From: Malassezia japonica
Taxonomy: Eukaryota; Basidiomycota; Malasseziomycetes; Malasseziales; Malasseziaceae
Direction: 5' to 3'
Length of the DNA: 64,000 nucleotides
Assembly (NCBI RefSeq): GCF_029542785.1
Contig: NC_083378.1
Location: 471,367 to 535,366, forward strand
The notes under the pieces are model-generated. The model worked only from the letters and a program-made list of their open reading frames with translations. It searched no databases and was not told where the DNA came from. Position 1 is the stretch's first letter. Each line of letters begins with the position of its first letter. Shown in pieces: positions 4,923 to 64,000 of this stretch. The translations under genes and the position numbers were made by a program.

Positions 4923-6164
4923 ATGGACTGGGTCCAGCCAGTATCGTCAACTGTGCCCAGTGCTCCTGATGTGGCCCAGACGAACATGGCGCCTCCAGAT
5001 GTATTTGCCGCCATGGCACCAGAGACGGGCGAGACGCTCACGTCTCGGCTCCCTTTCGGCCCTACGTTTCCCATCGAGGCTACGATCCAGCCCAACTCGA
5101 TTCCCCTTCCTTGGGACCAAAAACACCAAGCATGGGCGACGCCCAACTCGTTCGCCGATGCGAGCAGCTACATGCTTCCCCCTACATTCACTTCTAGTGA
5201 CATTCACCGCTCGTCTTCACAACCGGCTAATAAACGCAGAACGAATCATATGGACTGGAGCACAACGCACAACAGCCGTGACACCTTGTACGCTCACGAA
5301 TTCCTCAAGGCATTCCGCGCTCGTCTGCCAGATTCGGCAGAGGGCCAGGCCGCTTGCGATTATTGCCGGAAACGAAAAATCAAGGTACGTCGGTCGAAAG
5401 TCCGAAGAGAATTAACCGTGCAGTGTGATCGCAAAAAACCAACTTGTGGCCACTGCGCCCAATCGGGCCGTGTCTGCACAAGTGATGATGTCCTGCGCAA
5501 GCGTGGGCCGCCAAGCAAGTACGTATTTCTTGCCGATTATGCTAACCTTAGACGCGAACGCGCCATCATGGACAATGCCGGTATCGTCTTCCGGAGCCGG
5601 AACTCGAGGGTTTCCAAATATGGCTCGCGTCGTACGTCGTCAGAGACTTCGCGCGACCCGGCAGGCCTCGGCAGTAATTCCCCCATGTCGACGCAGCCGA
5701 GTGCCGAAGGGTTTCCCATGCTGCCCCCCTCTACTCCCGGTGCGCTTCAGCACAATGTCATCAACACGAGCGACCTGAATGCTAGGAATTCGATGAACTG
5801 GGGTAAGGGCGACGGATGGTTCAGTCCCACCGGTGCTGCGCCAGGCACCGGCGCCGTCCCGGGCCTAACGATGGGCATGAGCCCCGAGAAGCCCGATGCG
5901 AGCGTCGCTGGCATGGGTCTGCCTTCAAGTGGCATCGACATGCAGCTTTTGCAAAACTTCCAGCCTAGTGCTCCGTGGCTCAACAGCCAGAACGAGAGTA
6001 GCTGGCAGGACCTTTCCGCGCAGCCCCACATGGCCGGCATGAACCTGATGGGCCTGCCCGAGTCGCAAGGAGTTCCGAGCAATTTTGCCAGTCAGCAAAA
6101 GGGGAGCAATGGCCCTAATGTGCCTAGCCCATACGAGCCGTCCATGTCTTCTTACCACCCACTG

Positions 6165-6211
<47 letters not shown>

Positions 6212-7877
6212 ACAGCAACAGCAACAGCACATGTACGGTGGTGCCCCCAACGTGAATCAGGGCAATGGCATGCCAGGGCGAATGGACTTTGACTCTATGA
6301 GTCAGACCTACAAGCTTATGAATACGAGTTCGAATGAGAGTGATCTTTCTCTGTTGACCAAACCAATGGTACCGACTGAGCAAGGTCCGCCGTCTGCAGA
6401 GACTGGCACTCCTAGCATCCCGTCGGAAACAGCGTCGGAAAAAGAAGTCATCCAGCACAATTGCAAGGCGGCTCTAGACAATTTCTTTGGATCCGTGTCG
6501 GCGCAAGGCATTTCAACGCAAAAGCTAGCCGACTTTTGTTTGCGTCAAGGTCACACTGAGGTTTCGCCGGACACGACTGGTGAGCAGACGCTTGGACTGC
6601 TGAGCCCGCAGAGACACAGTGGGAGCACAGCGGTGGAGGCGGTGTGCATCCGAGTTCTTGACAAGGATGGCCAAGTGAAGCTCTGCCCCGCGTCGTCGTA
6701 CTACCGCGATGTGCCGAGTATGTACAAGGGTGAGGAAACGGGAGTGGAGTACCCGGGTGGTGTGTTTGGAGGTGCAACGCGCGCCCATGCGCCTGTCCCC
6801 CAAAAATCGGAGAAGTCGCTCTTCCCCACGGGTCGATGGTCGGACACCGACTATGCGAAGTTGCTGAGTGATGCGCAACGCCTCTTGACGCGGTCGGCGA
6901 CACCGGTGTTGCTGAGCCTCGGCAGGGGTGATCTGCAGCACTCCCTTCCGTTCTTGCAGTGGGATTTGATTGAGCACTACGTCACGGCTGTGCGTCAACC
7001 GACGACGAACGAGTGGACGCCGGTCCAGGCGTGCCAGCGCCAAGCACTGCTGTTGCTGATTGCCGCGGTTGCCTCTACACTCTTCCCCGCCATCCGCATC
7101 CCCGGTGACGAAGGGACGAAAGGCGTTAGTGCGTCTGCGTGGGAGTTTGGCTACCAGTGCTACTATACGGCGCGTGGCCTGTTGGCACCTCGCAATGTCC
7201 AGCTTGGAGGAAATGAAGTGACACTGGACTATGCCCAGAGCATGGTTTTGCTCAACATCTATTTCACGCGGTGCCAGCAGTACGCAGATGCGTTCTCCGC
7301 ACTCGCACACGGTGTCAACACCTGTCTCAAGCTTGCCCAGCAGCCAATCGTGCAGCAGCCTTCCAATGCGACGCTTGCTTCGACCATCTTGCAGCGCGAG
7401 ATGGTGAAGCGCTGCCTATGGGTTTTGTGCCTGTTGGAGCGCCTGCACCGCGCCGAAACGCGCGACGGGTCGCCTGCGCTGTTCTCCGACGCGATTCTCT
7501 CGCTTGAAAAGCCTGTTCTGTTGCGCGGCCTCAGCGTTTCCGAGTGCCGCCCCGATGAGGGTCTGACGCAGGACGCGTTCAACGTGTTCCTGAGCCAGCT
7601 GTCGTTGGCGCAGCTGCTCGCCGAGGCCAACACGCACGGTATCTTTTTCATGGACCCTAGCACGCTGCCAGAAGGGAGTCCGACCTATGCCGCTGCTCAT
7701 ACATTGATCGAAAAAGCAAAGCGCTGGGTCGCAGAGACTCCCTGTATCCTTCGCCCAGTCTCGACCGACCAATTCTCCGATCCTTCCGCGGGCACGTGGA
7801 CCACATCTGCATCCATCAATATGAAGGGCCTTTTCCAAGCGATGATGGCCCAAGTCTTTCAATTCACGCTTGTGTAA
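4923..7877 (+). CDS. Zn(II)2Cys6 transcription factor with polyglutamine tract
   Basis: Three exons (4923-5384, 5424-5518, 5552-7877) give about 960 residues. Both introns (39 and 33 nt) are multiples of three, so the unspliced frame stays open, but the zinc cluster is correct only after splicing: CDYCRKRKIK joins CDRKKPTCGHC and AQSGRVC, giving the C-x2-C-x6-C-x6-C-x2-C-x6-C pattern, followed by LRKRGPPSK-RERA. A run of 23 Gln lies near 6163-6228. The C-terminal half (about 6800-7877) is helical and resembles the fungal-specific transcription factor domain. Target genes cannot be deduced. The N-terminus before the zinc cluster is long and probably disordered. Confidence 0.88.
6163..6228 (+). 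repeat. CAG/CAA repeat encoding polyglutamine
   Basis: Mixed CAG and CAA codons encode an uninterrupted Gln run between PLQ and HMYGG in the Zn2Cys6 regulator. The CAA interruptions should lower slippage. The tract is likely to vary in length between strains. Confidence 0.9.
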
Positions 7878-39300: not shown

Positions 39301-41839
39301 TGCGCGTCTTGTGTTGAACGCGCAGCAGATCTTCCACATCGACCCGCGCAAGCCGAGCGATTTGTCGCCGTTTGAGGTTGTCGACGGTCTGCGCCATGTG
39401 CTGGACCGCCTGACGGTCGTCCGCGGCTCCGACACCATTTCGCGTTCGATGCAGGAGAATGCGACGCTTCTGTTCAAGATCCACGTCCGCTCCTTCCTCT
39501 GCTCGAAGCAGGCGATCGAAGTGCACCACCTCTCGCGCGAGGCGTGGGAGTGGGTCATGGGCGAGATCGAGGGCCAGTTTGCGCGCAGTATTGCGCAGCC
39601 GGGCGAGATGTGCGGTACGCTTGCTGCGCAGAGTATCGGTGAGCCGGCGACGCAGATGACGCTCAACACCTTCCACTATGCTGGTGTCTCGAGTAAGAAC
39701 GTCACGCTCGGTGTGCCCCGTCTCAAGGAGATTATCAACTGTGCGGAGAACATCAAGACGCCGTCGGTCACCGTGTACCTCGACCCGAAGTACAGCGTCT
39801 CGTCCGAGTCGGCCAAGGTGATCCAGACGGCGCTTGCGTACACTACGCTGCAGACCGTTACGTCGGCGGTCGAGGTCTTTTACGACCCCGACCCCAGCTC
39901 GACGGTGATCCCCGAGGACCGCGAGTTTGTTGATGCCTTCTTTGCGATTCCCGACGAGGAGGTCGAGGCGAGCCTCGAGCGCCAGTCGCCGTGGCTTTTG
40001 CGTCTTGTGCTGGACCGCGCGCAGATGCTCGACAAGAACCTGACGATGGCCGAGGTTGCGTCCAAGATCGGCGCCATGTTTGGCCGCGATATCTTTGTGA
40101 TGCACTCGGAAGACAACGCCGAGGAGCTGGTTCTCCGTATCCGTATCGTCGACAACGATCCGGACAAGGAGGTGCAGGGCGAGGAGGACATCTTCCTCAA
40201 GAGCCTTGCGCAGCAGATGCTCACCGACATTGCGCTGAAGGGTGTGCCCGGCATCTCCAAGGTGTTCATCGTGAAGCAGGACAAGTCGACGCGCCGCTTC
40301 GACACGGTCACCGGCGAGTGGAACACGGTGAAGGAGTATGTGCTCGAGACCGACGGCACGAACCTCAAGGACGTGCTGGCGGTTGACGGTGTGGATGTCT
40401 CGCGCACGCTCTCGAACAACTGCGTGGAAGTCTTCCGCGTGTTTGGTATCGAGGCCGCGCGTGGCTCGCTCCTCAAGGAGATCCGTAATGTGATTGAGTT
40501 CGACGGTTCCTACGTCAACTACCGTCACTTGGCGCTCCTGGTGGACATTATGACGTCGCAAGGCGCGCTGATGGCCATCACCCGTCACGGTATCAACCGC
40601 ACGAACCAGGGCGCGCTCATGCGCTGTACCTTTGAGGAGACTGTCGAGATCCTGATGGAGGCCGCGTCGATGGGCGACCTGGACGACTGCAAGGGTGTCG
40701 GCCAAAATGTGCTGCTCGGCCAGATGGCGCCGATGGGCACGGGTTCCTTTGACCTGAACTTGGACGTGGACATGCTCAAGGACGTCATTGTGAACCGCAA
40801 CCAGCCCTACGCGAACTTGTACGCCTCCAAGCTCGGCATGGATGACGACGGCGGCAAGACGCCGGGCGGCATGACGCCGTACGACGCGTCCTCGCCGAAC
40901 GTCGACGACTTCCGTGTCCAGCAGCAGGCCATGTTCTCGCCGCTCGTCCAGGTCGGCGGCGACGAAGGCGGCTACGGCGACTACCTCGCTGCAGGCCGCT
41001 CGCCGATGCGCACGCCGCTCGGCGCACAGAGCCCGGGATACGGATACGCCCCGACCTCGCCGGGGTACGTCCCAACGTCGCCCGCGTACAACGCCACGTC
41101 GCCCGCGTACGGCGGCATGGGCGGCATGAGCCCGTGGGTGGGTGGCGGCGGCGCAACGTCGCCGGCGTACTCGCCGACCTCGCCGCAGATCTTTGCGGGT
41201 GCTACGTCGCCGGCGTACTCGCCGACGTCCCCGAGTTACTCGCCGTCGTCGCCTGCGATGGGCGTTACAGGCAACACGCGCAGTTCCTACACTTCGCGCA
41301 TGTCGCCTGCGAGCCCCGCGTACTCGCCGACGTCGCCCGTGTACTCGCCGACGTCGCCTGCCTACTCGCCGACGTCCCCGGCCGGACCGCGGGGTGCGCG
41401 TCGCCCGGGTGCGGGGCCGAAGTACTCGCCGACTTCGCCGCAGTACTCGCCGACCTCGCCACAGTACTCGCCGACGTCTCCGCAATACTCGCCGACGTCT
41501 CCACAGTACTCGCCGACGTCTCCGCAGTACTCGCCGACGTCTCCGCAGTACTCGCCGACGTCCCCGCAGTACTCGCCGACGTCCCCACAGTACTCGCCGA
41601 CCTCGCCGCAGTACTCGCCGACCTCTCCGCAATACTCGCCGACCTCTCCGCAGTACTCGCCGACGTCCCCGCAATACTCGCCGACCTCGCCTCAGTATTC
41701 GCCTACGTCCCCGCAGTACTCGCCGACGTCTCCGCAGTATTCGCCGACGTCCCCGCAGTACTCGCCGGGCGGTGCACCGGGCGGTGCGGCCTCCCCACGC
41801 CGCAGTCGCATGGGCAGCAAACCTACGTGGCAGCGTTAA
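36310..41839 (+). CDS. RPB1: RNA polymerase II largest subunit
   Basis: Catalytic subunit of Pol II. Exons 36310-36396, 36444-36713 and 36737-41839, introns 47 and 23 nt, 1819 residues. The spliced N-terminus reads [19 protein letters not shown] followed by [11 protein letters not shown], then [20 protein letters not shown]. The active-site loop [20 protein letters not shown], bridge-helix region and trigger-loop region ([16 protein letters not shown]) are intact. The C-terminal domain has about ten degenerate heptads, then 16 consecutive YSPTSPQ units (41423-41758), then a basic tip ([13 protein letters not shown]). Position 7 of the array is Gln instead of Ser. Confidence 0.98.
41423..41758 (+). 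repeat. 21-bp tandem repeat encoding 16 YSPTSPQ heptads
   Basis: Sixteen in-register 21-bp units code for Tyr-Ser-Pro-Thr-Ser-Pro-Gln and are followed by YSPGGAP. Synonymous changes (TCG/TCT/TCC, CCG/CCC) differ between units, so the amino-acid pattern is conserved beyond simple recent DNA duplication. Confidence 0.95.
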
Positions 41840-50928: not shown

Positions 50929-52170
50929 CTAGATGCACCAGTTGATCACCGCAGGCTGTACACGAAACAGCTCTCGCCCTTCGAGAACAAAGAACAGAAC
51001 GGAAGCCTGCCTTTGGACGGCCTCCTTCTCCGTCTGGCAGTCGAGAACAATAAAATTGGCCGGCTTACCTTTTTCCAGACCATAATCGGGGTAGAGCTGG
51101 AGGTTGTGTGCAGGGTTGGTCGTGACAAAGTCCAGGCAGCTCGCCAAGTAGTCTCCAGAGAGCATGTGGCACACATGCAGTCCCGCATCCAAGTTCCTCA
51201 GGGGGTTTCCTACGCCCATCGGGTACCACGGGTCTTCAATCGAGTCCTGACCAAAGGCAACGCGCAGACCAGCATCAGCAAGTGTGCGCACGGGAGCCAC
51301 CCCACGGGGCACCGGAGCGCTAAGGCCACGACCTTGCAGCTGCAGATTCTCGTTGGGACACACGGCAAAGCCGATTCCTGCCGCAACAAGCTTGGGAAGC
51401 AGGCGCGCCATATAAGCCGGGCTATAATATGCCATAGCGACAACATGGCTAGCAGTTACGCGCCCTTGCATTCTGCGCTTTATCGTTTCAGCAGCCATCA
51501 CTTCAAGGAATCGGGAGTGCGAATCGTCGATCTCGTCACAGTGAATGTCCACCAGTGCGTTGTACTCTTGGGCAAGATCAAAAATAAACTTGACCGATTC
51601 CACGCCATCTTCTCTGGTAGGTTCCAGGTGAGGAATACCGCCAACTACATCGGCACCCATATCCATCGCCTTCTTCATAAGGTCACGTCCTTGTGGGAAG
51701 GCGATAATACCGTTCTGGGGGAATGCAACAATCTGCAAGTTGCACCAGTCTGCAATCTCTTTTTTGAGCTCCAATAGCGCTTTTAGTGCAACCAGATCAG
51801 GGTCTGTCACATCCACATGCGATCGAATAAAGCCTACGCCAAAGGAGATGGCCGACCTTGCGGCCGCATAGGCATTGCGCTTAATTTCATCGTGGTTGTT
51901 CAGCCCGGCCTTTTTTCTTTCCCCCCAAATCTCGATAGCCTCAAAAAGTGTGCCAGACCGGTTAATACGTGGCACACCTGCGGTATTGGCATAATCAAGA
52001 TGAATATGATTCTCGACAAAGGGCGAGCATACCAACTTGCCAGCGGCATCATAATCGCCTTCACTAGTTCCTGCTTTCGGGGAAGGCGTAATCGCGGAAA
52101 TCAACCCATTCTCCACATGAATGTTCCACAGACCTTCACGTCCGCGAAGTACTGCGCTAGTAACGATCAT
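50929..52170 (-). CDS. bacterial-type cytosine / 5-methylcytosine deaminase homologue
   Basis: 413 residues, no intron, ATG at 52170. It is strikingly similar along its whole length to bacterial CodA (amidohydrolase superfamily), not to the small fungal FCY1 deaminase. Visible ligands: H55 and H57 in ENHIHLD, H210 and E213 in HCDEIDD, H242 in TASHVV, D309 in FGQDSIEDPWYP; these match E. coli H61, H63, H214, E217, H246 and D313. The next residue is Ser310 where E. coli CodA has Asp314. Bacterial homologues lacking that Asp were shown to deaminate 5-methylcytosine and 5-fluorocytosine. Lack of introns and lower GC suggest horizontal acquisition. It diverges from the MFS gene. Confidence 0.88.
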   Translation of the reverse strand: MIVTSAVLRGREGLWNIHVENGLISAITPSPKAGTSEGDYDAAGKLVCSPFVENHIHLDYANTAGVPRINRSGTLFEAIEIWGERKKAGLNNHDEIKRNAYAAARSAISFGVGFIRSHVDVTDPDLVALKALLELKKEIADWCNLQIVAFPQNGIIAFPQGRDLMKKAMDMGADVVGGIPHLEPTREDGVESVKFIFDLAQEYNALVDIHCDEIDDSHSRFLEVMAAETIKRRMQGRVTASHVVAMAYYSPAYMARLLPKLVAAGIGFAVCPNENLQLQGRGLSAPVPRGVAPVRTLADAGLRVAFGQDSIEDPWYPMGVGNPLRNLDAGLHVCHMLSGDYLASCLDFVTTNPAHNLQLYPDYGLEKGKPANFIVLDCQTEKEAVQRQASVLFFVLEGRELFRVQPAVINWCI

Positions 52171-52555
52171 TGTGGTAGTTCTCAATACGGCCAAGGCTGA
52201 GTCGAATGGAATGCACGGACATTCATTTGCGTATGAATCTTACAGCCGACGTAAGAATTATCCATCTTGGCACTGTGTGGAGGCGCGCCTTGTGCCGCCA
52301 CGGCTTTGGGCGGAATTATTTCTGCCAATGAGAACCGCGTATGGGGGGAAGAGTAACGGCGGTTTAGGCCGGATCTAGTTCGGCATTCCTAGGCACTAAA
52401 ACGTTGTGGTCTGTGCGTAGTCCTTGACAAAGCTGAAAACGTAGAATGGTGGCAGAGGGCACCGTTATAAATAGGCAAGAGAAATGCCTCGTACAAGTGC
52501 GCTCTTTAGCAAACATCTCTTGCCACAGCTCTTCAGTCTAAGTATTCCCTGAGCA
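52171..52555. promoter_or_regulatory. divergent promoter, deaminase / MFS transporter
   Basis: 385 bp shared by two divergent genes. It contains TATAAATA at 52465-52472, about 85 bp before the MFS start, an inverted GATA core (TTATC) at 52257-52261, and a palindromic CGG-N6-CCG at 52360-52371. The last is the spacing used by Ppr1 and UaY, Zn2Cys6 regulators of pyrimidine and purine use. Confidence 0.55.
52360..52371. promoter_or_regulatory. candidate Zn2Cys6 operator CGG-N6-CCG
   Basis: CGGTTTAGGCCG is an inverted CGG pair with a 6-bp spacer. Homodimeric Zn2Cys6 factors bind such sites, and the spacing matches Ppr1/UaY. A Zn2Cys6 gene lies 2 kb away in the same cluster. Confidence 0.4.
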
Positions 52556-54166
52556 ATGGCATCTTCCACAACATTAGCATCCCCTGGAATGATGGAGAAG
52601 GGCGAGGTGCACCACGCAGGTGCAGCCCACCACCACCACCACCACCATGTTGATGAGGACGTTGGCCCTTTCCCTGAACACGTTGGCCGCGACGAGATGA
52701 TCGATGAAGACCTCGAACCTGTCGCAGAGGATGACAATATCAACGAAAAGGGAGACCCGTTTTTGGTTCAATTCTCGGAGAATGACCCGGGTAACCCCAA
52801 GAACTACTCGTTTACCCGGAAGTGGTTCATCACTGCCTTCACTGCCGTTCTTTGCTTCAGCGTTGCTGTTGGTTCTTCGATGCCTACTGGTGACCTTCCT
52901 GGCGCGGGTGAAGCATTGGGTGTGGGCCAGGTCCCTATTAACCTGAGCATTACGCTCTTCGTTGCCGGCTTCGGCTTTGGTCCCATGTTTTTTGCTCCCC
53001 TGAGTGAGATTTACGGTCGCTGGGTAATTTATGTGATTTCGGGCTTTCTCTACTTCATCTTCACTCTGCCTTGCGCCCTCGCGCCTAATCTGGCTACACT
53101 GCTTGCCGCTCGTATGATTGCCGGCCTCGCTGCCAGTGTGCCCATGACCAACGTCGGTGGCACGCTGAGTGACATTTGGCGTCCGGAGGACAAGGGTCTT
53201 CCCATGGCCATCTTCTCATCTGTTCTGTTCATCGGTCCTTCGGCTGGTCCGTTGATTGGCGGCGCCATTACTTCCGGTACTAACATGATTGATGGCTGGC
53301 GCTACATTTACTGGACCCTGTTTGCATTTGTCGGCATCATCTGGATTCTGACTCTGCCTACGACCGAAACCCTGGCCCCCGTTCTACTGAAGCGCCGCGC
53401 CAAGAAGCTGCGTAAGGAGACGGGCGACGAGAGGTACATGACCATGCAAGAGAGGAACCCGATGGATCTCAAGAAGATCCTTGTCATCTCTCTTCTGCGT
53501 CCCTTTGAGCTGCTTGTGATGGAGCCTATCCTGATTGCTTTCTCGCTCTATCTCTGCCTTGTTTATGCTCTGCTGTACTTGATGTTCTTCGCATACCCCA
53601 TTATTTTCGAAGAAGGACATGGATTCAACCCTCTGCAAGTCGGCTTGTGCTTCATCTCCCTGATTATCGGTATTTTGCTTTCCATCCTCTTCATTTGGTT
53701 TGTGATGGAGCCGATGACCAAGCGCCGTATTGAGGCGCGCGGACACCCTGTCCCTGAGGACAGGCTGCCCCTCATGTTCATTGGTGCAATTGCGCTTCCC
53801 ATGTCTCTCTTCATTTTGGCATGGACGTCAATGCCTAGTGTGCACTGGGCAGGACCTCTTGTCGCTGGTATTCCCACGGGCGCGAGCTTTGTCATGATCT
53901 ACATCTCCGCCAACTCGTACCTTGTCGACTGTTACCCCAAGGTGGCAGCTTCGGCTCTTGCGGCAAAGACGCTGCTTCGGTCTCTCTGCGGTGCTGCAGT
54001 GCCGACCTTCGTCTTCCAAATGTTCCACGCTATGCACAACCAGTGGGCGCTGACCATGCTCGCTCTGGTCTCCGTGCTCATGGCCCCTATTCCATTCTTC
54101 TTCTATAAGTATGGACCCATGATGCGCGAAAAGTCCAAGTTTGCATCCGGTGATGATGATAATTAA
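52556..54166 (+). CDS. MFS transporter, DHA1 (polyamine/drug:proton antiporter) type
   Basis: 536 residues, no intron, 12 predicted membrane helices. The N-terminal cytosolic region holds a run of seven His followed by acidic residues. Family features: DPGNPKNYSFTRKWFITAF before helix 1, GPMFFAPLSEIYGRWVIYVI (motif A-like, loop 2-3), RMIAGLAASVPMTNVGGTLS, DIWRPEDKGLPMAIFSSVLF, IGPSAGPLIGGAITSGTNMI with DGWRYIYW (motif C region). This is the TPO/FLR-type DHA1 layout. Substrate is unknown; placement opposite the deaminase suggests a base or drug, but that is inference. Confidence 0.92.
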   Translation: MASSTTLASPGMMEKGEVHHAGAAHHHHHHHVDEDVGPFPEHVGRDEMIDEDLEPVAEDDNINEKGDPFLVQFSENDPGNPKNYSFTRKWFITAFTAVLCFSVAVGSSMPTGDLPGAGEALGVGQVPINLSITLFVAGFGFGPMFFAPLSEIYGRWVIYVISGFLYFIFTLPCALAPNLATLLAARMIAGLAASVPMTNVGGTLSDIWRPEDKGLPMAIFSSVLFIGPSAGPLIGGAITSGTNMIDGWRYIYWTLFAFVGIIWILTLPTTETLAPVLLKRRAKKLRKETGDERYMTMQERNPMDLKKILVISLLRPFELLVMEPILIAFSLYLCLVYALLYLMFFAYPIIFEEGHGFNPLQVGLCFISLIIGILLSILFIWFVMEPMTKRRIEARGHPVPEDRLPLMFIGAIALPMSLFILAWTSMPSVHWAGPLVAGIPTGASFVMIYISANSYLVDCYPKVAASALAAKTLLRSLCGAAVPTFVFQMFHAMHNQWALTMLALVSVLMAPIPFFFYKYGPMMREKSKFASGDDDN

Positions 54167-54360
54167 TAGGATACGCGTATTTTAGTATCATAAGTTGTAT
54201 GTATCAAACACGAGTAAATCGAAGCTATATGAGCGATTCTCTAACGTAAACGCTGACGAATGCGTTAAATCTGCCGATTTAGAGAAACAGGACAATGGCA
54301 CGTCCCGGCCGACCCGGGAAATAATCTTGCGGCTTGTCTCCACAACGTCCTGGTTGGAGC

Positions 54361-56532
54361 ATGCTCGAGCCACCGAACGACGGGGGGCTATCGGGTAGGC
54401 CCACGAAGAGGATTCGTCGCCCAAGACAGCATATCAGCTGCATTCCCTGCCGCGAGCGTAAAATCAAATGCGATCGCAATGTACCCAACTGCGCGACCTG
54501 TGTGCGACGTGGGGTGGTCGACCAGTGTCGTTGGGGGGACGATCGCGATGGGGATATCAGTGACAGCTTGAGGAGCTATAATTCAGAGCCTTTGGTTGAA
54601 AACGTGACCATTCACGCGCCCAACCGTACGATGAATGGCCGCACGGATGTTGTTGAGTCTGGACATAGAGAGCGTCCGCCTTCTCGGCCTAGTCCTTTGC
54701 AACATCCCGGCCAAGAGTTCCGCAGCTCTCCTCCTAATGTGGATGATAAGAAGAGTAATACACGTCTCGCTGAGCTATACTCTCTCAGGTTTTCTCGATG
54801 GAAGCAATTGTTGTTGTGTCGCGCGCACTTGATACCCCACCGCCCAGCCATGTCAAGTATTGTCTCTTATTATATGCAGGAGCTCGAGCCGCTGCTAAAC
54901 TGCGTCAATGGAGACATCCTAGTAGACCAGTTTGAATCAATGTGGAACAATCTGGGAGTTGTCTACCGAAACGAGAGCACCGTCGACTTGGACGGTGATG
55001 CTTTAACGCAATCAGGTCCTCTGGCGTTCCAAGACTTTTGGACCAATATGAAAAACTACGGCCTTCTGGCGCTCGCCTTATCCATTGTTTACGTCGCTTA
55101 TGATTCTCTGTCTCTGGACCAAATACATGCAATGGACCTCTTGGGTGATTGCAATAACCGAGATGATGTGACGCAGGTTCTTGAGCGCATATACACCGCG
55201 TCCGAGTATTTTTTACATGAATCCCAGTATGAAGACCATGCAACACTATGGAGCTTGCAGGCAATCTTATTACAGCAGCGCAGACATTACCGAATGGGAT
55301 ATTTTTCCACCGCCACTGTCTGGCACGCAAGAGCTGTACGCATTGGTTACATGCTCGGTCTCTCTCGGCTGGGTAGCACCAAAAATGATCTGGTGCGGTT
55401 TCGGCAGAAGGATTCGAAACTGGGGCCGGACACCGGTGTATTTATCCAAAATCTTCCTATGTTCCATTGCTTTGAGCTCGGAAACATGCCAATGCGCGAG
55501 CTCGCGAGAAAAGTGTGGACTGCGCTTGTCGCACAAGACTGGTTTGTCTCACTGCAGCTCGACCTTTGCTACCTGATCCCAGAAGAAATCAATAACACGT
55601 CACCACCTGCATCGTTAGAGGACAGTGAAGTGGAAGCCTTGGCTACGCTGCCAATGGATGTGATTTGTGACCAGGATCGAATCTCTCCTAGTGTCTATTT
55701 GCGCTTTCGACTGGAAGTGAGCCGCTGCTCTCGCTTGATTTCTCAAATTTGCTCCAAATCCTTTGTCCAGGAAGCGACACCCATACCCCCCATGGAAGAA
55801 GTGTTTAAAGTCGAGAACATCTTGAACAACATCTCGTCCAAGCTACCAGATTATTTCCGCATGGATGGCGAAACCGAACGGTCACTTCCTATGCAACTTA
55901 TCCATGCGAAATGTCCATATCTTACTGCGCAGCGACTGTTTCTCCATGAGAATATCCAGCATGTCACACTTCGACTTCATTCACTGTATTTCAAAAAGGG
56001 CCTTGTTGACAAAACACACCGCAAATCTGTGGATGCATGTATCCAAGCTGCGAAAGAAATGGTACAAGTTTGGGAAGTACTGCAGTCTACCATGAACTCT
56101 AATCGTGATGTCCCCTACCTGAAATGGCACCTGCTTATTGCTGCATCGGTTTTCACATCCGTGGTGGCCAGCAAGATTGCACACCCTGATATGGAATCCC
56201 TACACGGTATTGATCTTGGACAGCAACAAGAAGCTTTGGAAAAAGCAGTCTACTTTTTGGAAGAAATCCGTCCCGAAAATTCCCTGGGAGCCACTGGTCT
56301 CTCTAATATTATATCGCGTCTCAGCCAGTATTGCCGGCGTCGCAAAGGAAAAACACACTCAGGACAAGACAAAATGATGTACCCTAACCGCGACACATCT
56401 CAGAATCCATTGATACCTGATCTCAACCTGTTGCTGCCAATGAACTCGCTGACGGAAAGTGGCAATGATGTCAATAATTTTTGGGACATCAACACACTTG
56501 CATCAGACTTTAGCCCATGGAGTAGCTTTTGA
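54361..56532 (+). CDS. Zn(II)2Cys6 transcription factor, cluster-associated
   Basis: 723 residues, no intron. The binuclear cluster is near the N-terminus: ISCIPCRERKIKCDRNVPNC followed by ATCVRRGVVDQCRWGDD, with C-x2-C-x6-C-x6-C-x2-C-x8-C spacing. A fungal-specific transcription factor domain follows (DQIHAMDLLGDCNNRDDVTQ, LWSLQAILLQQRRHYRMGYF, ARAVRIGYMLGLSRLG, MRELARKVWTALVAQDWFVS). The ATG at 54361 is the first in frame. Lower GC than the core genes. It sits 194 bp behind the MFS gene on the same strand and could be the local regulator of the deaminase/MFS pair. Confidence 0.92.
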   Translation: MLEPPNDGGLSGRPTKRIRRPRQHISCIPCRERKIKCDRNVPNCATCVRRGVVDQCRWGDDRDGDISDSLRSYNSEPLVENVTIHAPNRTMNGRTDVVESGHRERPPSRPSPLQHPGQEFRSSPPNVDDKKSNTRLAELYSLRFSRWKQLLLCRAHLIPHRPAMSSIVSYYMQELEPLLNCVNGDILVDQFESMWNNLGVVYRNESTVDLDGDALTQSGPLAFQDFWTNMKNYGLLALALSIVYVAYDSLSLDQIHAMDLLGDCNNRDDVTQVLERIYTASEYFLHESQYEDHATLWSLQAILLQQRRHYRMGYFSTATVWHARAVRIGYMLGLSRLGSTKNDLVRFRQKDSKLGPDTGVFIQNLPMFHCFELGNMPMRELARKVWTALVAQDWFVSLQLDLCYLIPEEINNTSPPASLEDSEVEALATLPMDVICDQDRISPSVYLRFRLEVSRCSRLISQICSKSFVQEATPIPPMEEVFKVENILNNISSKLPDYFRMDGETERSLPMQLIHAKCPYLTAQRLFLHENIQHVTLRLHSLYFKKGLVDKTHRKSVDACIQAAKEMVQVWEVLQSTMNSNRDVPYLKWHLLIAASVFTSVVASKIAHPDMESLHGIDLGQQQEALEKAVYFLEEIRPENSLGATGLSNIISRLSQYCRRRKGKTHSGQDKMMYPNRDTSQNPLIPDLNLLLPMNSLTESGNDVNNFWDINTLASDFSPWSSF

Positions 56533-56656
56533 GTAATTACTCTTGTATAGTGTCACCCGCTTCCATGATGCAAGCAGTTCATATATCACGTACCAAGCTC
56601 TTGTGCTTCAAAATTCCACATCAATCATAATCTCTACAAGCCAATACATCCAAAAT

Positions 56657-57654
56657 TTAGTTGCTCACAGACTTCTCGCTCGAAGGAGTGCGCTCGTAGT
56701 ACTTAATCGCACCGTCGGCCTTCGCACAAGTCGAGTTGGTGGTCGAGTCGATGTGGACGGCGTTGCCCTCCTGCGGGCGACCCTTGACCTGTGTTGTGTT
56801 AGTAATGTTTCGCGTGCAGAAAAAATACGTACGTGGCTGAAGTACCAGACCTCGCTCAGCACAGTGCTGCCGTGGTCGGTGCTGTTCTTGGAAGTCTCGT
56901 TGTAACGCGGGCCGCTGCAACCGATGTAAGGAGTGGCACCGTAATGCTTCTTGAGGGCAGACTGAATGTCGCTAAGCGAGTACGTGGTCTTGTTGCTCGG
57001 CTCAATACCAGCATCCTTGAGCCACTTGTAGGTAGGCAGGCGGTTGTAGTACATGGCGGCAGTCTCGAAAAACTCAACGACGTCCTCGTGCTTCTGGTAG
57101 TGCTTACCGTAGCAAGGAGTGTCAAAGGTGCTGTAGCAAGTACCGTGCTTGCTAAACTCGTGGGCCCAGAAAGCCTCGTTGCTCTGGCCCTGCGACACCC
57201 AGAAGGTCTTCATCCACTTGAGGAGGTCGTAACGGCCGAAGTTCTCCACGAACTTGTCCACACCAGGGCCGTTGTACTTCGGCACCGTCTTGCCGTTCAC
57301 AACGGGAGGGGAAGGCTCAGGGTCATACTGGCGGTCAAAGTCGCAGTACTGCGTGTAGTTGCCGTTGCAAAGGTCGGGCCAGAGACCGTGCAGTGTCCAG
57401 TGGTTCTTGGGAAGGATCTGGCCCTCCTTTTCGCGGCCAGTGTAGGTATCCCAGAACTGGGTGGAGAGGACAAGGCCACCGTACGTCTCCTGGCAGCAAG
57501 TGTCGATGTTGGCCAGGTCAAGAGCAGCAGCCGAGCACGACACAATAGGCTTCTGGAGCGCACAAGTGTGGTTCGACTCGCTCGTGTTCGAGTAAAGCTT
57601 AGCCTGGGCCACGGCGGCCAGGGTGAGAGTAACGAGAGCACCGAACTTGAACAT
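56657..57654 (-). CDS. secreted ribonuclease T2
   Basis: Exons 56833-57654 and 56657-56788, intron 44 nt, 317 residues. Signal peptide MFKFGALVTLTLAAVAQA. Both catalytic blocks are intact: CAS I NHWTLHGLWPDLC and CAS II EAFWAHEFSKHGTC, each with its histidine. Cysteines pair as in fungal T2 enzymes (SNHTCALQ, VSCSAAALD, DTCCQETYGG). Splicing joins EVWYFSH to VKGRPQEGNAVHIDSTTNST, giving the usual last strand. Several N-glycosylation sequons are visible. Expected to degrade RNA outside the cell or in the vacuole. Confidence 0.95.
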
Positions 57655-58097
57655 TGTGGTGGGTGCGGAAGCAATCAACATACTCGTTCTTTTAGACTCG
57701 TTTCATACCGAAATAGGAATCTTGCCAATGCACGCGCCCTACTCCAAATTAACGTGCACGCCCCTTTTGGGACCCACGTGCCCGAGCGATTGGACTAGAG
57801 GGGCTGGGTAGGTCGTTTCAGCACATGACTAATTGCCATAAGCTCGTATGGCTGAGAGCTCGTGTGCCCCACATCGAGGCCTATCGGATCTGCTGGTAGA
57901 TCAACGGCGCTAAAGAAAACTAAATTCATTCCATACATGACAATGTAACCTAAAACCCATAACAATGCGGTAGAAACCATCACTGCGGCATAGAGAGGAG
58001 CACTTGGCTCCAGAGCATAAACATGAAAACGTTAGAGAAGGTAGGACTGCTTGATGGAGAGAATAGTATAATTGATGACCGAGAAGAAATGGAAGTA
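57655..58097. promoter_or_regulatory. intergenic region, RNase T2 promoter side
   Basis: 443 bp upstream of RNase T2 and downstream of the lipase. CCCACGTG at 57772-57779 is an E-box-like site. A 62-codon minus-strand frame (57795-57983) has one hydrophobic stretch but no other support. No repeat or RNA gene is seen. Confidence 0.35.
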
Positions 58098-58997
58098 TTA
58101 ATGCATTTGCGAGCCCACAATAGCGGGGCACAAACCGGGGTTCGGTCCCAGGTTCGTGTGGAAGTACGATCCCTTGTGGTCGAACATGGTGCAGTTCTTG
58201 CCCACGGAATCGGCTCCATGAACATTCTCTTGTCCCGGATAGAAGGTCCAAAGCGAAGAGTTGGCACCATTGATCCAAATTTGTCCGGAGGGGTGCTGGA
58301 AATCGTTATCGCGCGAAGACATGTGCGGAACACAGTCCTTTCCGTTGACAGCGTAATAGAATTTGCCTTTCAGCTTGTAGTCAATCGCGTTTGCAAACGT
58401 AGGGTTGCCCGTACGGGGAAGACCAAACGAGTATGCCCTGTAGATTCCCTGCTTCAGCTCATGCTCAAAGTGAGCGGCAGCAAGCAAAGCCATGGCACCG
58501 CCAAGCGAATGACCTGTGAGTGTAACACGTTGCTCCTTGTGCTCTTTCGTGAGCTCCTTGACCTTTTGAAGGACATGGCTCGCAACACCAACGTATGCGC
58601 TTTGGAAACCTTTGAAAAGTTTCGTGCCAGGCGGGAATGCAGAGCCAAACAACCGGTGAGGTTCGACTTGCTTGGCATCAAGGTCGTGCACAAGAGAGAA
58701 GAATTTGGATGCATCTGTTCCCTCAAATGCCACAACGATACCCAAGCTCTTGGACTTGAAGATGACCGTACGCTGAACGAAATCGCCGTCGCCATACTCG
58801 TACAAAAGGTGTGCATCACCGACCGTCTGGTTCTTGTGCTGGTTGGAGCAGTACGGTTGCTGAGCCAGACCTGCTGCCTGACTCAGGCGCTTCCAGTCCT
58901 CAGGAATGCGGTGACCGTGGTGCAGCGACTGTGGGGCTTTGTTCAAGGCAGCAGCAAAAGCCACAAATGATGCGAGAAAAAGGAGTATGATTTGCAT
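58098..58997 (-). CDS. secreted class-3 lipase
   Basis: 299 residues, no intron. Signal peptide MQIILLFLASFVAFAAALNK. Class-3 lipase core: VVAFEGTDASKFFSLVHDLD (oxyanion region), VTLTGHSLGGAMALLAAAHF with the GHSLGG nucleophile elbow, AYSFGLPRTGNPTFANAIDY, NGKDCVPHMS with a candidate catalytic Asp, and KGSYFHTNLGPNPGLC with the candidate His. Malassezia-type yeasts secrete a family of such lipases to use host or environmental lipids. The Cys residues near residue 49 and at the C-terminus could form the disulfide common in this group. Confidence 0.95.
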   Translation of the reverse strand: MQIILLFLASFVAFAAALNKAPQSLHHGHRIPEDWKRLSQAAGLAQQPYCSNQHKNQTVGDAHLLYEYGDGDFVQRTVIFKSKSLGIVVAFEGTDASKFFSLVHDLDAKQVEPHRLFGSAFPPGTKLFKGFQSAYVGVASHVLQKVKELTKEHKEQRVTLTGHSLGGAMALLAAAHFEHELKQGIYRAYSFGLPRTGNPTFANAIDYKLKGKFYYAVNGKDCVPHMSSRDNDFQHPSGQIWINGANSSLWTFYPGQENVHGADSVGKNCTMFDHKGSYFHTNLGPNPGLCPAIVGSQMH

Positions 58998-59562
58998 AAT
59001 TGTAGCAAGTAGGGCTTCAAGCTTCTAATTGCTCACTTCCTGCAACAACAAAGGAGTGGAGACCTGCTCCGTATAATAGAGGGGGATGTAGGTCGGGTAA
59101 AGGGACAAAATTGAAGCTGAATCCCTTATCACGCGAATGTCTCGTCCTTGGTGAATGCATCGCGTCTTGCCGCGTGGGCGGACAGCAGGATCGACGGCAC
59201 ACTGCTTTACGCCTAAGCTTATTCAGATCGGGTGAGAATCTGTACCAACAATTGGCTCAAATTAAATGTTTTGACTAATTAGATCTGCAGGAGGTTGTAC
59301 TTTACACCGTCCGATGCACGAGCCGAACGCTTCTAGAGACCATGATACGCCCCGCCACGGAGTTATCCCCGGCATTCCATGGTACATGTCAACATTACAC
59401 GTGACAAAAAGCCTGGGTCTAGCAATAAGCACTTGCGGAACAATGTGCCTTGAGCATCCGTGCATATTGTGAAGAGGTGCCGCTATAGAACTATAGGATG
59501 GGAATACGCCACCTTATTAAACATCAGATTATGTACCGTTCGGTCAAACGATACTCATTTAT
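58998..59562. promoter_or_regulatory. intergenic region between lipase and FrsA-like hydrolase
   Basis: 565 bp without coding support, moderately AT-rich, upstream of the lipase (minus strand) and downstream of the next hydrolase. No RNA gene, repeat or mobile element was recognised. Confidence 0.35.
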
Positions 59563-60903
59563 TTATAGCACCGTAACGAGATGCTTCTTCATCCAGTCTA
59601 TTGACAGGTTAAGCCATTCTGCCGCATGAGCCATGGCACAATGATCGTCATGTTGGTACAACTTTAAGCATGAATTCGGCGCCAGCTCCGCCAGCTCAAC
59701 CGTGTCCTTTGCGTCAACCAGCGTGTCAGAGTCGCCGTTGATGGCCAGCACGTGGCAGGAGATGGCTCGCAACTCGTCGCGCGAAGGGGCTAATGCCTTC
59801 AGCTTGGTCGACACAGTCATAGCGTTGGCCCCAGCCGCGTGCGATAGGGCTTCTATCATGATCTGGGGCATGCCAAAGGCGGCGGACGGGCTCAAGCTTC
59901 GCTGCAGCGGCGCACCGTTGGCAACCATTGCTTTCAGGCGCTTGTCGCGTATGGCCATTCTCGTAGCCCAGTGAGCGCCGAAGCTCAGTCCCATCATACC
60001 AACTCTGTTGCTGTCCACAAATTCAAGCGACTGCACAAAGGAAATGGCGTCGGCGTAAATGCAGTCGGTCACGCCAAGGCTCATCGGCGCCTTGTATGCG
60101 TACGTGCCCGGCATCTCCATGAAAAACCACGCTACCTCGCCAAGTCTGCCGCAGCGCAGAAAAGGCATGATGGACTCTGCGTTTGTTCCTTCGAGGCCGT
60201 TTGTCATCAACACGCCAGCGAGGCTATCTTTCGCCGGCTGTTGGTTAGTCTTGGTAGAGGTTGGCACGAGTCCGTATATCGTCACCTCTTCACCGTGCGA
60301 TGCAAGGGTGTGACGGATGACACGCATTCCGAGCGGCGAGGTACAAGCGTCGAGGATGATGTCGAACATTCGGCTGGACATGGAATACGCGATGTTGCGC
60401 TTCGGCGTGCCGCCGGGCCATGCCGCCTGAAAAAGATAGGCTGTGGCTTTCAAAGCCGCGTCCAGAGCCATGATAGGTCCACGCTGCTCTGCGGGAGCAG
60501 CCTTGACCATCTCTGCCGCTTTGCTGCTCGATCCGAGAGGAGTGTTTTGCAGCAATGTAGTGCCGCGGCCAAGGTATGCGTAGATTTCCGGGAGCGGCAA
60601 TGACGCATCTTGGTCGCCTTGTATGTACTTTCGTACGCTTGGTAGCCCTAATTTTCCCAGCTCCCTGTCCAAGTCATCGATGTAAGAAAAGGCAAGGTCT
60701 GACCAGTATTGTGCCCAGGCGTGGTCGCAAAATGAAGTGCATTGGTCCATCTGTCGCGCAACGAGCTCCTCGTCCATGGCGCCTATCAATGCGATTCGTT
60801 TTGGAGCTAGCGCTGGAAGAAATCTTTTGACGCTTGTGATCTGGGCTGCCAAATCGGTTGTTCCAGTTACAGCCAGTAAAGTGACTATACATTGGAACAA
60901 CAT
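59563..60903 (-). CDS. FrsA/Ayg1-like alpha/beta hydrolase with signal-like N-terminus
   Basis: 446 residues, no intron; ATG at 60903. MLFQCIVTLLAVTGTTDLAA is a plausible signal peptide. The C-terminal half is an alpha/beta hydrolase: IYGLVPTSTKTN strand region, SLAGVLMTNGLEGTNAESIM, DSNRVGMMGLSFGAHWATRM (nucleophile in GLSFG), CHVLAINGDSDTLVDAKDT (candidate Asp) and LYQHDDHCAMAHAAEWLN (candidate His). The N-terminal helical cap region (WAQYWSDLAFSYIDDLDREL) is typical of the FrsA/Ayg1 group, which includes fungal pigment-chain hydrolases. Substrate unknown; a secreted esterase is possible. Confidence 0.8.
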   Translation of the reverse strand: MLFQCIVTLLAVTGTTDLAAQITSVKRFLPALAPKRIALIGAMDEELVARQMDQCTSFCDHAWAQYWSDLAFSYIDDLDRELGKLGLPSVRKYIQGDQDASLPLPEIYAYLGRGTTLLQNTPLGSSSKAAEMVKAAPAEQRGPIMALDAALKATAYLFQAAWPGGTPKRNIAYSMSSRMFDIILDACTSPLGMRVIRHTLASHGEEVTIYGLVPTSTKTNQQPAKDSLAGVLMTNGLEGTNAESIMPFLRCGRLGEVAWFFMEMPGTYAYKAPMSLGVTDCIYADAISFVQSLEFVDSNRVGMMGLSFGAHWATRMAIRDKRLKAMVANGAPLQRSLSPSAAFGMPQIMIEALSHAAGANAMTVSTKLKALAPSRDELRAISCHVLAINGDSDTLVDAKDTVELAELAPNSCLKLYQHDDHCAMAHAAEWLNLSIDWMKKHLVTVL

Positions 60904-60983
60904 TTTGGGCAACGTGAAGTACTGTGGAGTTCAGATAGGATCCGCTCAGGCAAGAAAAAGTGATCAATTGAAGTCAAAATGTC

Positions 60984-63582: not shown

Positions 63583-63621
63583 TGGATGTAGGATGTCGGA
63601 TGTAGGATGTCGGATGTAGGA
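63583..63621 (+). repeat. GGATGT/AGGATGTC transition repeats before the telomere
   Basis: Alternating GGATGTAGGATGTC units (two and a half copies) grade into TTAGGA repeats. They look like degenerate telomere units or a subtelomeric seed element. Confidence 0.8.
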
Positions 63622-64000
63622 TTAGGATTAGGATTAGGATTAGGATTAGGATTAGGATTAGGATTAGGATTAGGATTAGGATTAGGATTAGGGTTAGGAT
63701 TAGGATTAGGATTAGGATTAGGATTAGGATTAGGATTAGGATTAGGATTAGGATTAGGATTAGGATTAGGATTAGGATTAGGATTAGGATTAGGATTAGG
63801 ATTAGGATTAGGATTAGGATTAGGATTAGGATTAGGATTAGGATTAGGATTAGGATTAGGATTAGGATTAGGATTAGGATTAGGATTAGGATTAGGATTA
63901 GGATTAGGATTAGGATTAGGATTAGGATTAGGATTAGGATTAGGATTAGGATTAGGATTGTGATTAGGATTAGGATTAGGATTAGGATTAGGATTAGGAT
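63622..64000 (+). repeat. terminal telomere array of TTAGGA repeats
   Basis: About 63 units of TTAGGA run to the window edge with the G-rich strand 5' to 3' toward the end, the orientation expected at a right chromosome end. Only two variants are seen: TTAGGG at 63688-63693 and TTGTGA at 63958-63963. Most fungi use TTAGGG. Confidence 0.93.

What the first reader, a model, noticed from the sequence alone, without database searches (positions are those of the whole stretch)
50929..52170. CodA-like deaminase with Ser at the 5-methylcytosine discriminating site
The protein aligns with bacterial CodA along its length and keeps all metal and catalytic residues, but has Ser310 where E. coli CodA has Asp314. 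Bacterial CodA homologues that lack this Asp have been shown to deaminate 5-methylcytosine and 5-fluorocytosine. Most fungi use the unrelated FCY1 enzyme. A fungal gene of this type, intron-free and in an AT-richer arm, suggests transfer from bacteria and predicts 5-methylcytosine salvage to thymine and altered flucytosine sensitivity.
Basis: partly seen in the sequence, partly recalled or inferred. Interest (0 to 1): 0.75.

Follow-up and report, generated by a model that had tools for sequence, protein, structure and literature searches.

The report
Bacterial-type cytosine deaminase in Malassezia
A skin yeast (Malassezia) carries, close to a chromosome end, an intact gene for a bacterial kind of cytosine deaminase, and the usual fungal gene was not found in its genome, so it may have taken over a bacterial nitrogen-scavenging enzyme; whether its real target is cytosine, 5-methylcytosine or creatinine has to be measured.

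Summary
Window 50929-52170 (minus strand) encodes an intact 413-aa CodA-type amidohydrolase with the metal and catalytic residues and Ser310 where E. coli CodA has Asp314. The nearest solved structure, by sequence and by predicted fold, is the Klebsiella 5-methylcytosine deaminase. Ser310 is not peculiar to this fungus: all 135 aligned database relatives have Ser with Glu274; of 80 more loci, 64 have Asp with Val. The genome is Malassezia-like and looks telomere to telomere (18 of 18 contig ends); searches found no FCY1 and no DNA cytosine methyltransferase. Trees put the gene inside a clade of Actinobacteria that also holds Dothideomycete fungi; direct transfer versus arrival through another fungus is unsettled. 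Relatives of the C. glutamicum creatinine deaminase CodA seem to lie in that clade (its own sequence was not compared), so Ser310 alone does not predict 5-methylcytosine as natural substrate. No thymine-recycling enzyme was recognised, so '5mC salvage to thymine' is unsupported; ammonia release, plus uracil for UPRTase, is the better reading. Verdict: a real, probably horizontally acquired CodA, possibly replacing FCY1; substrate open; intron-lessness and AT-richness are weak evidence. Interest moderate.

The parts
50929..52170 (-). CodA-type amidohydrolase gene, 413 aa, intact, no intron
   Evidence: model pLDDT 92.3
51241..51243 (-). Ser310 codon (Asp314 in E. coli CodA, Ser in Klebsiella 5mC deaminase 4r7w)
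51349..51351 (-). Glu274 codon (Val278 in E. coli CodA, Glu in 4r7w); varies together with residues 308 and 310 across relatives
52171..52555 (.). 385-bp intergenic region between the divergent CodA and MFS genes, presumed to hold both promoters; one GATA[AG] core found
52556..54166 (+). Neighbour, not part of the acquired unit: Malassezia polyamine/spermine-type MFS transporter

Best explanation
A bacterial-type CodA enzyme of the Ser/Glu subgroup, whose closest named bacterial kin are Actinobacteria, was acquired horizontally by a Malassezia lineage and sits in a subtelomeric arm. It is the only enzyme of cytosine-deaminase type that I recognised in a genome where FCY1 was not found. It most likely works in the cytosol as CodA does (mechanism recalled): a metal held by the His/Asp ligands, with Glu213, His242 and Asp309, activates water and strips the exocyclic amine from cytosine-like rings, releasing ammonia. 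With cytosine it gives uracil, which a UPRTase found in the genome could salvage. Ser310 with Glu274 removes the Asp that keeps CodA from 5-methylcytosine, so 5-methylcytosine and creatinine are plausible further substrates. Shown: intact gene, conserved site, fold match, phylogenetic place, failure to find FCY1, UPRTase and cytosine/purine permease matches. Inferred: activity, substrates, location, role in nitrogen scavenging.
For: Full-length match to 4r7w and CodA. Foldseek top hits 4r7w and 4r88, TM 0.96-0.97, then CodA and its mutants, TM 0.94-0.95. Catalytic residues conserved. A 96% identical copy exists (P0002) with 16 differences, none at residues 55, 57, 152, 210, 213, 242, 274, 308, 309 or 310. 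Tree: 59-row clade (100/100) with named Actinobacteria and Dothideomycetes, on a branch of 0.91 from the rest. The neighbouring MFS has named Malassezia relatives of 74-82% identity, so the locus is fungal. No FCY1 found; UPRTase at two loci; 3 cytosine/purine permease matches, one weak. All 18 contig ends carry TTAGGA arrays.
Against: NCBIfam cytosine deaminase PRK09230 is matched below its cut-off (451.1 against 483), as are three named relatives tested. The AU test does not reject query plus Dothideomycetes (p 0.098), so direct bacterial transfer is not established. Several of the nearest rows are unnamed metagenome proteins of unknown organism. The FCY1 search is exon by exon with no fungal control, so an intron-split or diverged FCY1 could be missed. 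No expression or activity data.
Confidence: 0.6

Rival explanations
1. The main natural substrate is creatinine: the gene is a corynebacterial-type creatinine deaminase used to take nitrogen from sweat or urine creatinine, giving N-methylhydantoin and ammonia.
For: Corynebacterium proteins fall in the same supported clade with the same Ser/Glu pair. C. glutamicum codA is annotated creatinine deaminase and lies in the AmtR nitrogen regulon (PMC1578569; PMC2723105); all C. glutamicum strains use creatinine as nitrogen source, and C. callunae and C. deserti are said to have various creatine/creatinine degradation proteins, which ones being in a figure not seen (PMC8864220). In 5 of 6 Corynebacterium loci (L107-L112, about 1.5 kb of flank each) an MFS gene lies beside the deaminase; the sixth (L108) has an integrase and three frames that were not scanned. 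P0017 (fungus) and P0083 (C. callunae) carry the source name creatinine deaminase.
Against: The query keeps Trp315 and Cys211 as in CodA and 4r7w, whereas C. callunae and C. deserti have Phe and Thr. No co-transferred transporter: the MFS next door is a native spermine-type gene. The Nigerium locus shows no transporter among five neighbours scanned, and L065 with the same Ser/Glu pair has a cytosine-type permease. The one Hydantoinase_B match cannot be told from fungal 5-oxoprolinase (recalled). The C. glutamicum sequence itself was not compared.
Confidence: 0.25
2. A specialised 5-methylcytosine deaminase that feeds 5mC into thymine salvage.
For: Ser310, Glu274 and Gln308 as in Klebsiella 4r7w; best sequence and fold match in the PDB. 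CodA with this Asp replaced by Ala gains 5mC activity (PMC6186785 passages).
Against: The same residues are near universal among the 135 aligned relatives. The Klebsiella enzyme lies outside the query's clade across a long branch. No DNA cytosine methyltransferase. No recognised thymine dioxygenase: the best oxygenase candidate matches 3oox at 323 bits against 121.6 for thymine dioxygenase, a second scores 45, a third was not compared. The only Amidohydro_2 match is dihydroorotase.
Confidence: 0.1
3. An ancient fungal gene inherited vertically and lost in most fungi, not transferred.
For: A Dothideomycete clade of homologues exists; grouping it with the query is not rejected (p 0.098).
Against: The only named fungi among the listed best 120 are Cladosporium, Polychaeton, Rachicladosporium and Oleoguttula. 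No named Malassezia homologue is listed although M. pachydermatis, M. yamatoensis and M. brasiliensis proteins are in the same database. The fungal rows sit among Actinobacteria.
Confidence: 0.04
4. Bacterial contamination or a decaying pseudogene.
For: The best named hits outside fungi are bacterial.
Against: The gene lies in a 535-kb contig beside fungal genes, has the GC3 of its arm (0.55 against 0.48-0.71), a 96% identical relative elsewhere, an open frame and a confident model.
Confidence: 0.01

Closest known systems
Klebsiella pneumoniae 5-methylcytosine deaminase (PDB 4r7w, 4r85, 4r88)
   Same: Best PDB match by sequence and fold; Ser310, Glu274 and Gln308 shared; 53% identity
   Different: Lies outside the query's clade, across a long branch; loop CPTES against CPNEN, FPQEG against FPQNG
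Corynebacterial CodA group (C. callunae P0083, C. deserti P0089); C. glutamicum creatinine deaminase CodA known from papers only
   Same: Same supported clade, same Ser/Glu pair, about 56% identity
   Different: Phe and Thr in place of query Trp315 and Cys211; MFS gene beside the deaminase in 5 of 6 Corynebacterium loci
E. coli CodA (1k6w; D314S mutant 1r9z)
   Same: Fold and catalytic set; 46.5% identity
   Different: Asp314, Val278 and His312 against Ser310, Glu274 and Gln308
Dothideomycete homologues (Cladosporium fusiforme P0015, Polychaeton citri P0017, Rachicladosporium P0018, Oleoguttula P0019)
   Same: Fungal, CodA-type, Ser/Glu; P0015 and P0017 about 64% identity
   Different: Separate supported clade; loop APREN in the three shown; not recovered as sister to the query
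Fungal FCY1 cytosine deaminase
   Same: Reaction expected on cytosine (recalled)
   Different: Unrelated family (recalled: PF00383 type); not found in this genome

Membership tests
CodA-type cytosine deaminase (amidohydrolase superfamily) | Full-length homology and amidohydrolase fold | tested here: met
CodA-type cytosine deaminase (amidohydrolase superfamily) | Metal and catalytic residues (CodA H61, H63, Q156, H214, E217, H246, D313) | tested here: met
CodA-type cytosine deaminase (amidohydrolase superfamily) | NCBIfam subfamily cut-off (PRK09230) | tested here: not met
   451.1 bits against 483; P0017, P0028 and P0083 fail it too
CodA-type cytosine deaminase (amidohydrolase superfamily) | Deaminates cytosine | not testable with these tools
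   enzyme assay needed
Bacterial 5-methylcytosine deaminase (Klebsiella type) | Asp314 replaced by Ser | tested here: met
   PMC6186785
Bacterial 5-methylcytosine deaminase (Klebsiella type) | Groups with the characterised enzyme in a tree | tested here: not met
Bacterial 5-methylcytosine deaminase (Klebsiella type) | Activity on 5-methylcytosine | not testable with these tools
   enzyme assay needed
Corynebacterial creatinine deaminase | Same clade as Corynebacterium proteins (C. callunae, C. deserti and others) | tested here: met
   59-row clade 100/100, 49-row clade 97/97; the C. glutamicum protein itself was not in the tree
Corynebacterial creatinine deaminase | Phe319 and Thr215 (CodA numbering) of C. 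callunae and C. deserti | tested here: not met
   query has Trp315 and Cys211; so has Corynebacterium sp. sy039 (P0045)
Corynebacterial creatinine deaminase | Linked creatinine transporter | tested here: not met
   neighbour is a Malassezia spermine-type MFS
Corynebacterial creatinine deaminase | Activity on creatinine | not testable with these tools
   enzyme assay needed
Fungal FCY1 | Cytidine-deaminase-like family (PF00383) | tested here: not met
   Pfam gives Amidohydro_3 and Amidohydro_1 only
Horizontally acquired gene | Nested among bacterial taxa with support | tested here: met
   direct donor unresolved

The most novel reading that the evidence does not exclude
A skin yeast lost the fungal cytosine deaminase FCY1 and replaced it with an actinobacterial Ser/Glu CodA whose relaxed pocket accepts cytosine, 5-methylcytosine and creatinine, letting it draw nitrogen from host-derived creatinine and modified bases. 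It would be a eukaryotic creatinine/5-methylcytosine deaminase acquired from skin or environmental Actinobacteria.
Probability: 0.25. Interest if true: 0.65.

Novelty: new member of a known kind. Interest (0 to 1): 0.45.

Why it matters
FCY1 is the usual fungal route from cytosine to uracil and the step that activates flucytosine (recalled). A Malassezia without a recognisable FCY1 but with a bacterial-type CodA would be a case of non-orthologous replacement in a human-associated fungus, and could give it access to nitrogen sources of skin such as creatinine, or to modified bases. It also shows that the Asp-to-Ser change marks a large subgroup and should not by itself be read as a 5-methylcytosine signature; the linked changes at residues 274 and 308 are a better handle.

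Tried and rejected
Thymine salvage: three 2OG-FeII_Oxy matches were found. The one on C3 lies near a cytosine/purine permease, but its best solved relative is 3oox (323 bits) and thymine dioxygenase scores 121.6; the one on C6 matches thymine dioxygenase at 45 bits; the third, on C5, was not compared with the PDB. The Amidohydro_2 match is dihydroorotase. Uracil catabolism: PF07958 rang in no control genome, so its absence here says nothing. Creatinine downstream: one Hydantoinase_B match, not diagnostic. GATA-type nitrogen control: one GATA[AG] core in the 385-bp intergenic region, none in the HGATAR form, inconclusive. Intron and GC arguments: neighbours share these traits. Flucytosine and Malassezia: one search listing (12 of 171 papers) and passages of PMC7399178, which show the drug in treatment tables and one reference title on a resistant M. 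pachydermatis; no bearing on this gene. Malassezia with creatinine: 10 of 131 papers listed, none to the point by title or displayed abstract.

Known already? Wu et al. 2015 (PMC4634964): only passages were seen; 'deaminase' and 'cytosine' do not occur in its main text; supplements were not read. Not held: Hitchcock 2014, the PNAS 2020 HGT paper, the flucytosine case report and a M. sympodialis genome paper. Searches for Malassezia with HGT and deaminase (11 of 11 listed), Malassezia with cytosine deaminase (10 of 31 listed) and HGT with cytosine deaminase in fungi and bacteria (15 of 31 listed) showed no paper whose title or displayed abstract reports such a gene; those papers were not opened for it. 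Whether it is on a published HGT list is unknown.

Rows dropped before counts: of proteins P0001-P0137 one (P0098, 356 aa) was left out, leaving 136 with the query, 135 without. The trees used 112 rows and 68 rows of the 218 aligned; partial and near-duplicate rows and most Firmicute loci were left out, among them the partial 'Myxococcaceae' MAG protein P0012 (72% identity). The search for related loci kept 80 of 520 confirmed loci; two of the 80 (Nigerium, C. pilosum) are organisms also present among the proteins. Homologue listings show the best 120 of 7902, 7999 and 1006. The 7 of 151 Corynebacterium genomes include the genome used as centre, chosen because it has the gene.

Full report
What is there. 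Window 50929-52170, minus strand, is an open frame of 413 aa with Pfam Amidohydro_3 (131.4 bits) and Amidohydro_1 (54.8 bits) and best NCBIfam model 'cytosine deaminase' PRK09230, at 451.1 bits against a cut-off of 483. The mechanical ORF list starts 8 codons earlier at a TTG; the ATG at 52170 fits the homologues. The best solved relatives are 4r7w (431.5 bits), titled 5-methylcytosine deaminase from Klebsiella pneumoniae, and E. coli CodA (about 383 bits). An AlphaFold model from 42 aligned sequences has pLDDT 92.3 and pTM 0.92. Foldseek ranks 4r7w and 4r88 first (TM 0.96-0.97), then CodA and its mutants, D314S among them (TM 0.94-0.95).

Active site. H55, H57, Q152, H210, E213, H242 and D309 match CodA H61, H63, Q156, H214, E217, H246 and D313 (roles in CodA recalled). 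Ser310 sits at CodA Asp314. It does not come alone: Glu274 replaces CodA Val278 and Gln308 replaces His312, all three shared with 4r7w. The three positions move together: in 136 of 136 database proteins (query included) residues 274/310 are Glu/Ser, with Gln308 in 135 and a gap in one; in the 80 GTDB loci kept, 64 are Val/His/Asp, 11 Ala/Leu/Ser and 5 Glu/Gln/Ser. The proteins are the best hits of Ser-type queries, so these frequencies describe the neighbourhood of the query, not the whole family. A paper whose passages I read states that CodA hardly acts on 5-methylcytosine, that replacing this Asp by Ala gives activity on it, and that the 5mC deaminase has Ser there (PMC6186785; its numbering is one higher).

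Which organism. The window is the last 64 kb of contig C9 (535,366 bases) of an 8.43-Mb genome in 9 contigs. All 18 contig ends carry long TTAGGA arrays (for 16 ends including the window's, for two), so the assembly looks telomere to telomere. The adjacent MFS transporter has named relatives in M. pachydermatis (82% and 80%), M. yamatoensis (74%) and M. brasiliensis (76% over about half its length), and the lipase at 58098-58997 matches PDB secretory family 3 lipases, LIP1 among them (that these come from M. globosa is recalled). I take the genus to be Malassezia. Nine chromosomes and about 8.4 Mb would fit M. slooffiae (nine telomere-bounded contigs, PMC7025860 passages; 8.3 Mb, PMC4634964 passages), but the species was not tested.

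Genome context. PF00383 gives six matches (12 of 14 control genomes ring, all prokaryotes). I read them by eye as dCMP deaminase, TAD3, TAD2 (two segments), a RIB2-like protein and cytidine deaminase (labels by recall), none FCY1. A direct search with yeast FCY1 finds only the TAD2 locus, E 0.004. There was no fungal positive control and the search goes exon by exon, so a split or diverged FCY1 could escape it. UPRTase matches lie at two loci, and three Transp_cyt_pur matches, one weak. No DNA cytosine methyltransferase (PF00145) is found, while 10 of 14 control genomes ring. So uracil made from cytosine could be salvaged, while 5mC would have to come from outside the cell or from RNA (inference). 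A thymine route was not recognised.

Ancestry. In a 68-row maximum-likelihood tree the query and its 96% relative P0002 fall in a 49-row clade (97/97) inside a 59-row clade (100/100) that holds named Corynebacterium, Nigerium, Mycolicibacterium, Brachybacterium and Neomicrococcus, and a 12-row clade (100/99) with four named fungi. Polychaeton, Cladosporium and Oleoguttula are Dothideomycetes and Nigerium an actinomycete; the other genera I place by recall. Klebsiella, Pseudomonas, CodA and Firmicute rows lie outside across a branch of 0.91. A 112-row quick tree agrees on this clade. Neither 'query plus Dothideomycetes' (p 0.098), nor that plus eight unnamed rows (p 0.18), nor 'query plus the unnamed rows' (p 0.24) is rejected. 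So bacterial-type origin is well supported; number and route of transfers are not settled. In Corynebacterium 7 of 151 genomes, the chosen centre included, hold a homologue at E <= 1e-60, so the gene is patchy there too. No named Malassezia homologue is among the 120 listed, although three Malassezia species are in that database; most entries carry no name, so this is only suggestive. More than 30 HGTs are reported in Malassezia (PMC7426719, passages).

The frame has no intron, but several neighbouring genes also read as single long frames. GC3 is 0.55, inside the 0.48-0.71 of seven other genes of this arm; seven genes chosen further inside the window have 0.66-0.85. These traits therefore do not mark this gene as foreign.

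Substrate. Two characterised groups bear on it. The Klebsiella enzyme shares the three pocket changes but lies outside the clade. The Corynebacterium group lies inside it: C. glutamicum codA is called creatinine deaminase and is in the nitrogen regulon (PMC1578569; PMC2723105), and all C. glutamicum strains use creatinine (PMC8864220, passages). That paper says C. callunae and C. deserti have various creatine/creatinine degradation proteins; that their P0083 and P0089 are the counterparts of C. glutamicum CodA is my inference (sources name them creatinine deaminase and cytosine deaminase), and the C. glutamicum sequence was not in hand. In 5 of 6 Corynebacterium loci (L107-L112) an MFS gene lies next to the deaminase; for L108 only one of four neighbouring frames was scanned, an integrase. 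C. pilosum has a POT-family gene there (L009); Nigerium shows no transporter among five neighbours scanned. Against the creatinine reading, L065, with the same Ser/Glu pair, has a cytosine-type permease and a PucR regulator beside it, and L014 PucR with ABC transport genes. At Trp315 and Cys211 the query is like CodA and 4r7w and unlike C. callunae and C. deserti; of the 136 proteins 99 have Trp and 122 Cys. I therefore commit to a broad cytosine-type deaminase used for nitrogen scavenging, with uracil as a useful by-product and creatinine as the strongest single rival. Activity itself is inference throughout.

Verdict. The strongest new point is its combination with a complete-looking genome in which FCY1 was not found. 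The 5mC prediction is possible but not specific, and thymine salvage is unsupported.

Noticed in passing
window 63584-64000; G000 contig ends L113-L129: The contig ends in about 69 copies of TTAGGA (not TTAGGG; one TTAGGG unit in the window); all 18 ends of the 9 contigs carry the same array. A figure legend in PMC7025860 says telomere motifs of four Malassezia species are shown there, so it may already be known.
   Followed up: yes
window 54334-60912: Subtelomeric arm with a Zn2Cys6 regulator, an RNase T2, a family 3 lipase and an FrsA-like esterase beside the CodA gene; the RNase could supply nucleotides, but no functional link was tested.
   Followed up: partly
L100-L101 (G000:C3:1010001-1024655): Near the end of C3, a cytosine/purine permease lies close to a FAD/NAD-type oxidoreductase gene and two dioxygenase genes (a 3oox-like 2OG-Fe enzyme and a TauD-type enzyme that may be a xanthine dioxygenase, by recall): a possible purine-scavenging cluster.
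   Followed up: partly
L012, L022, L030, L031 and 7 further Firmicute loci: A third subgroup with Ser at the Asp314 site but Ala and Leu in place of Glu274 and Gln308 (loop LPKAN), 11 of 80 loci: a natural test of which residue sets specificity.
   Followed up: partly
window 6164-6229 and 41417-41767: Poly-Gln-type repeat in a large regulator-like frame (4923-7877) and a 21-bp array of about 17 copies coding heptad repeats at the end of the RPB1-like frame.
   Followed up: no
P0012: A partial 'Myxococcaceae' MAG protein is 72% identical to the query on a 1.8-kb contig; it may be misbinned DNA of another organism.
   Followed up: no
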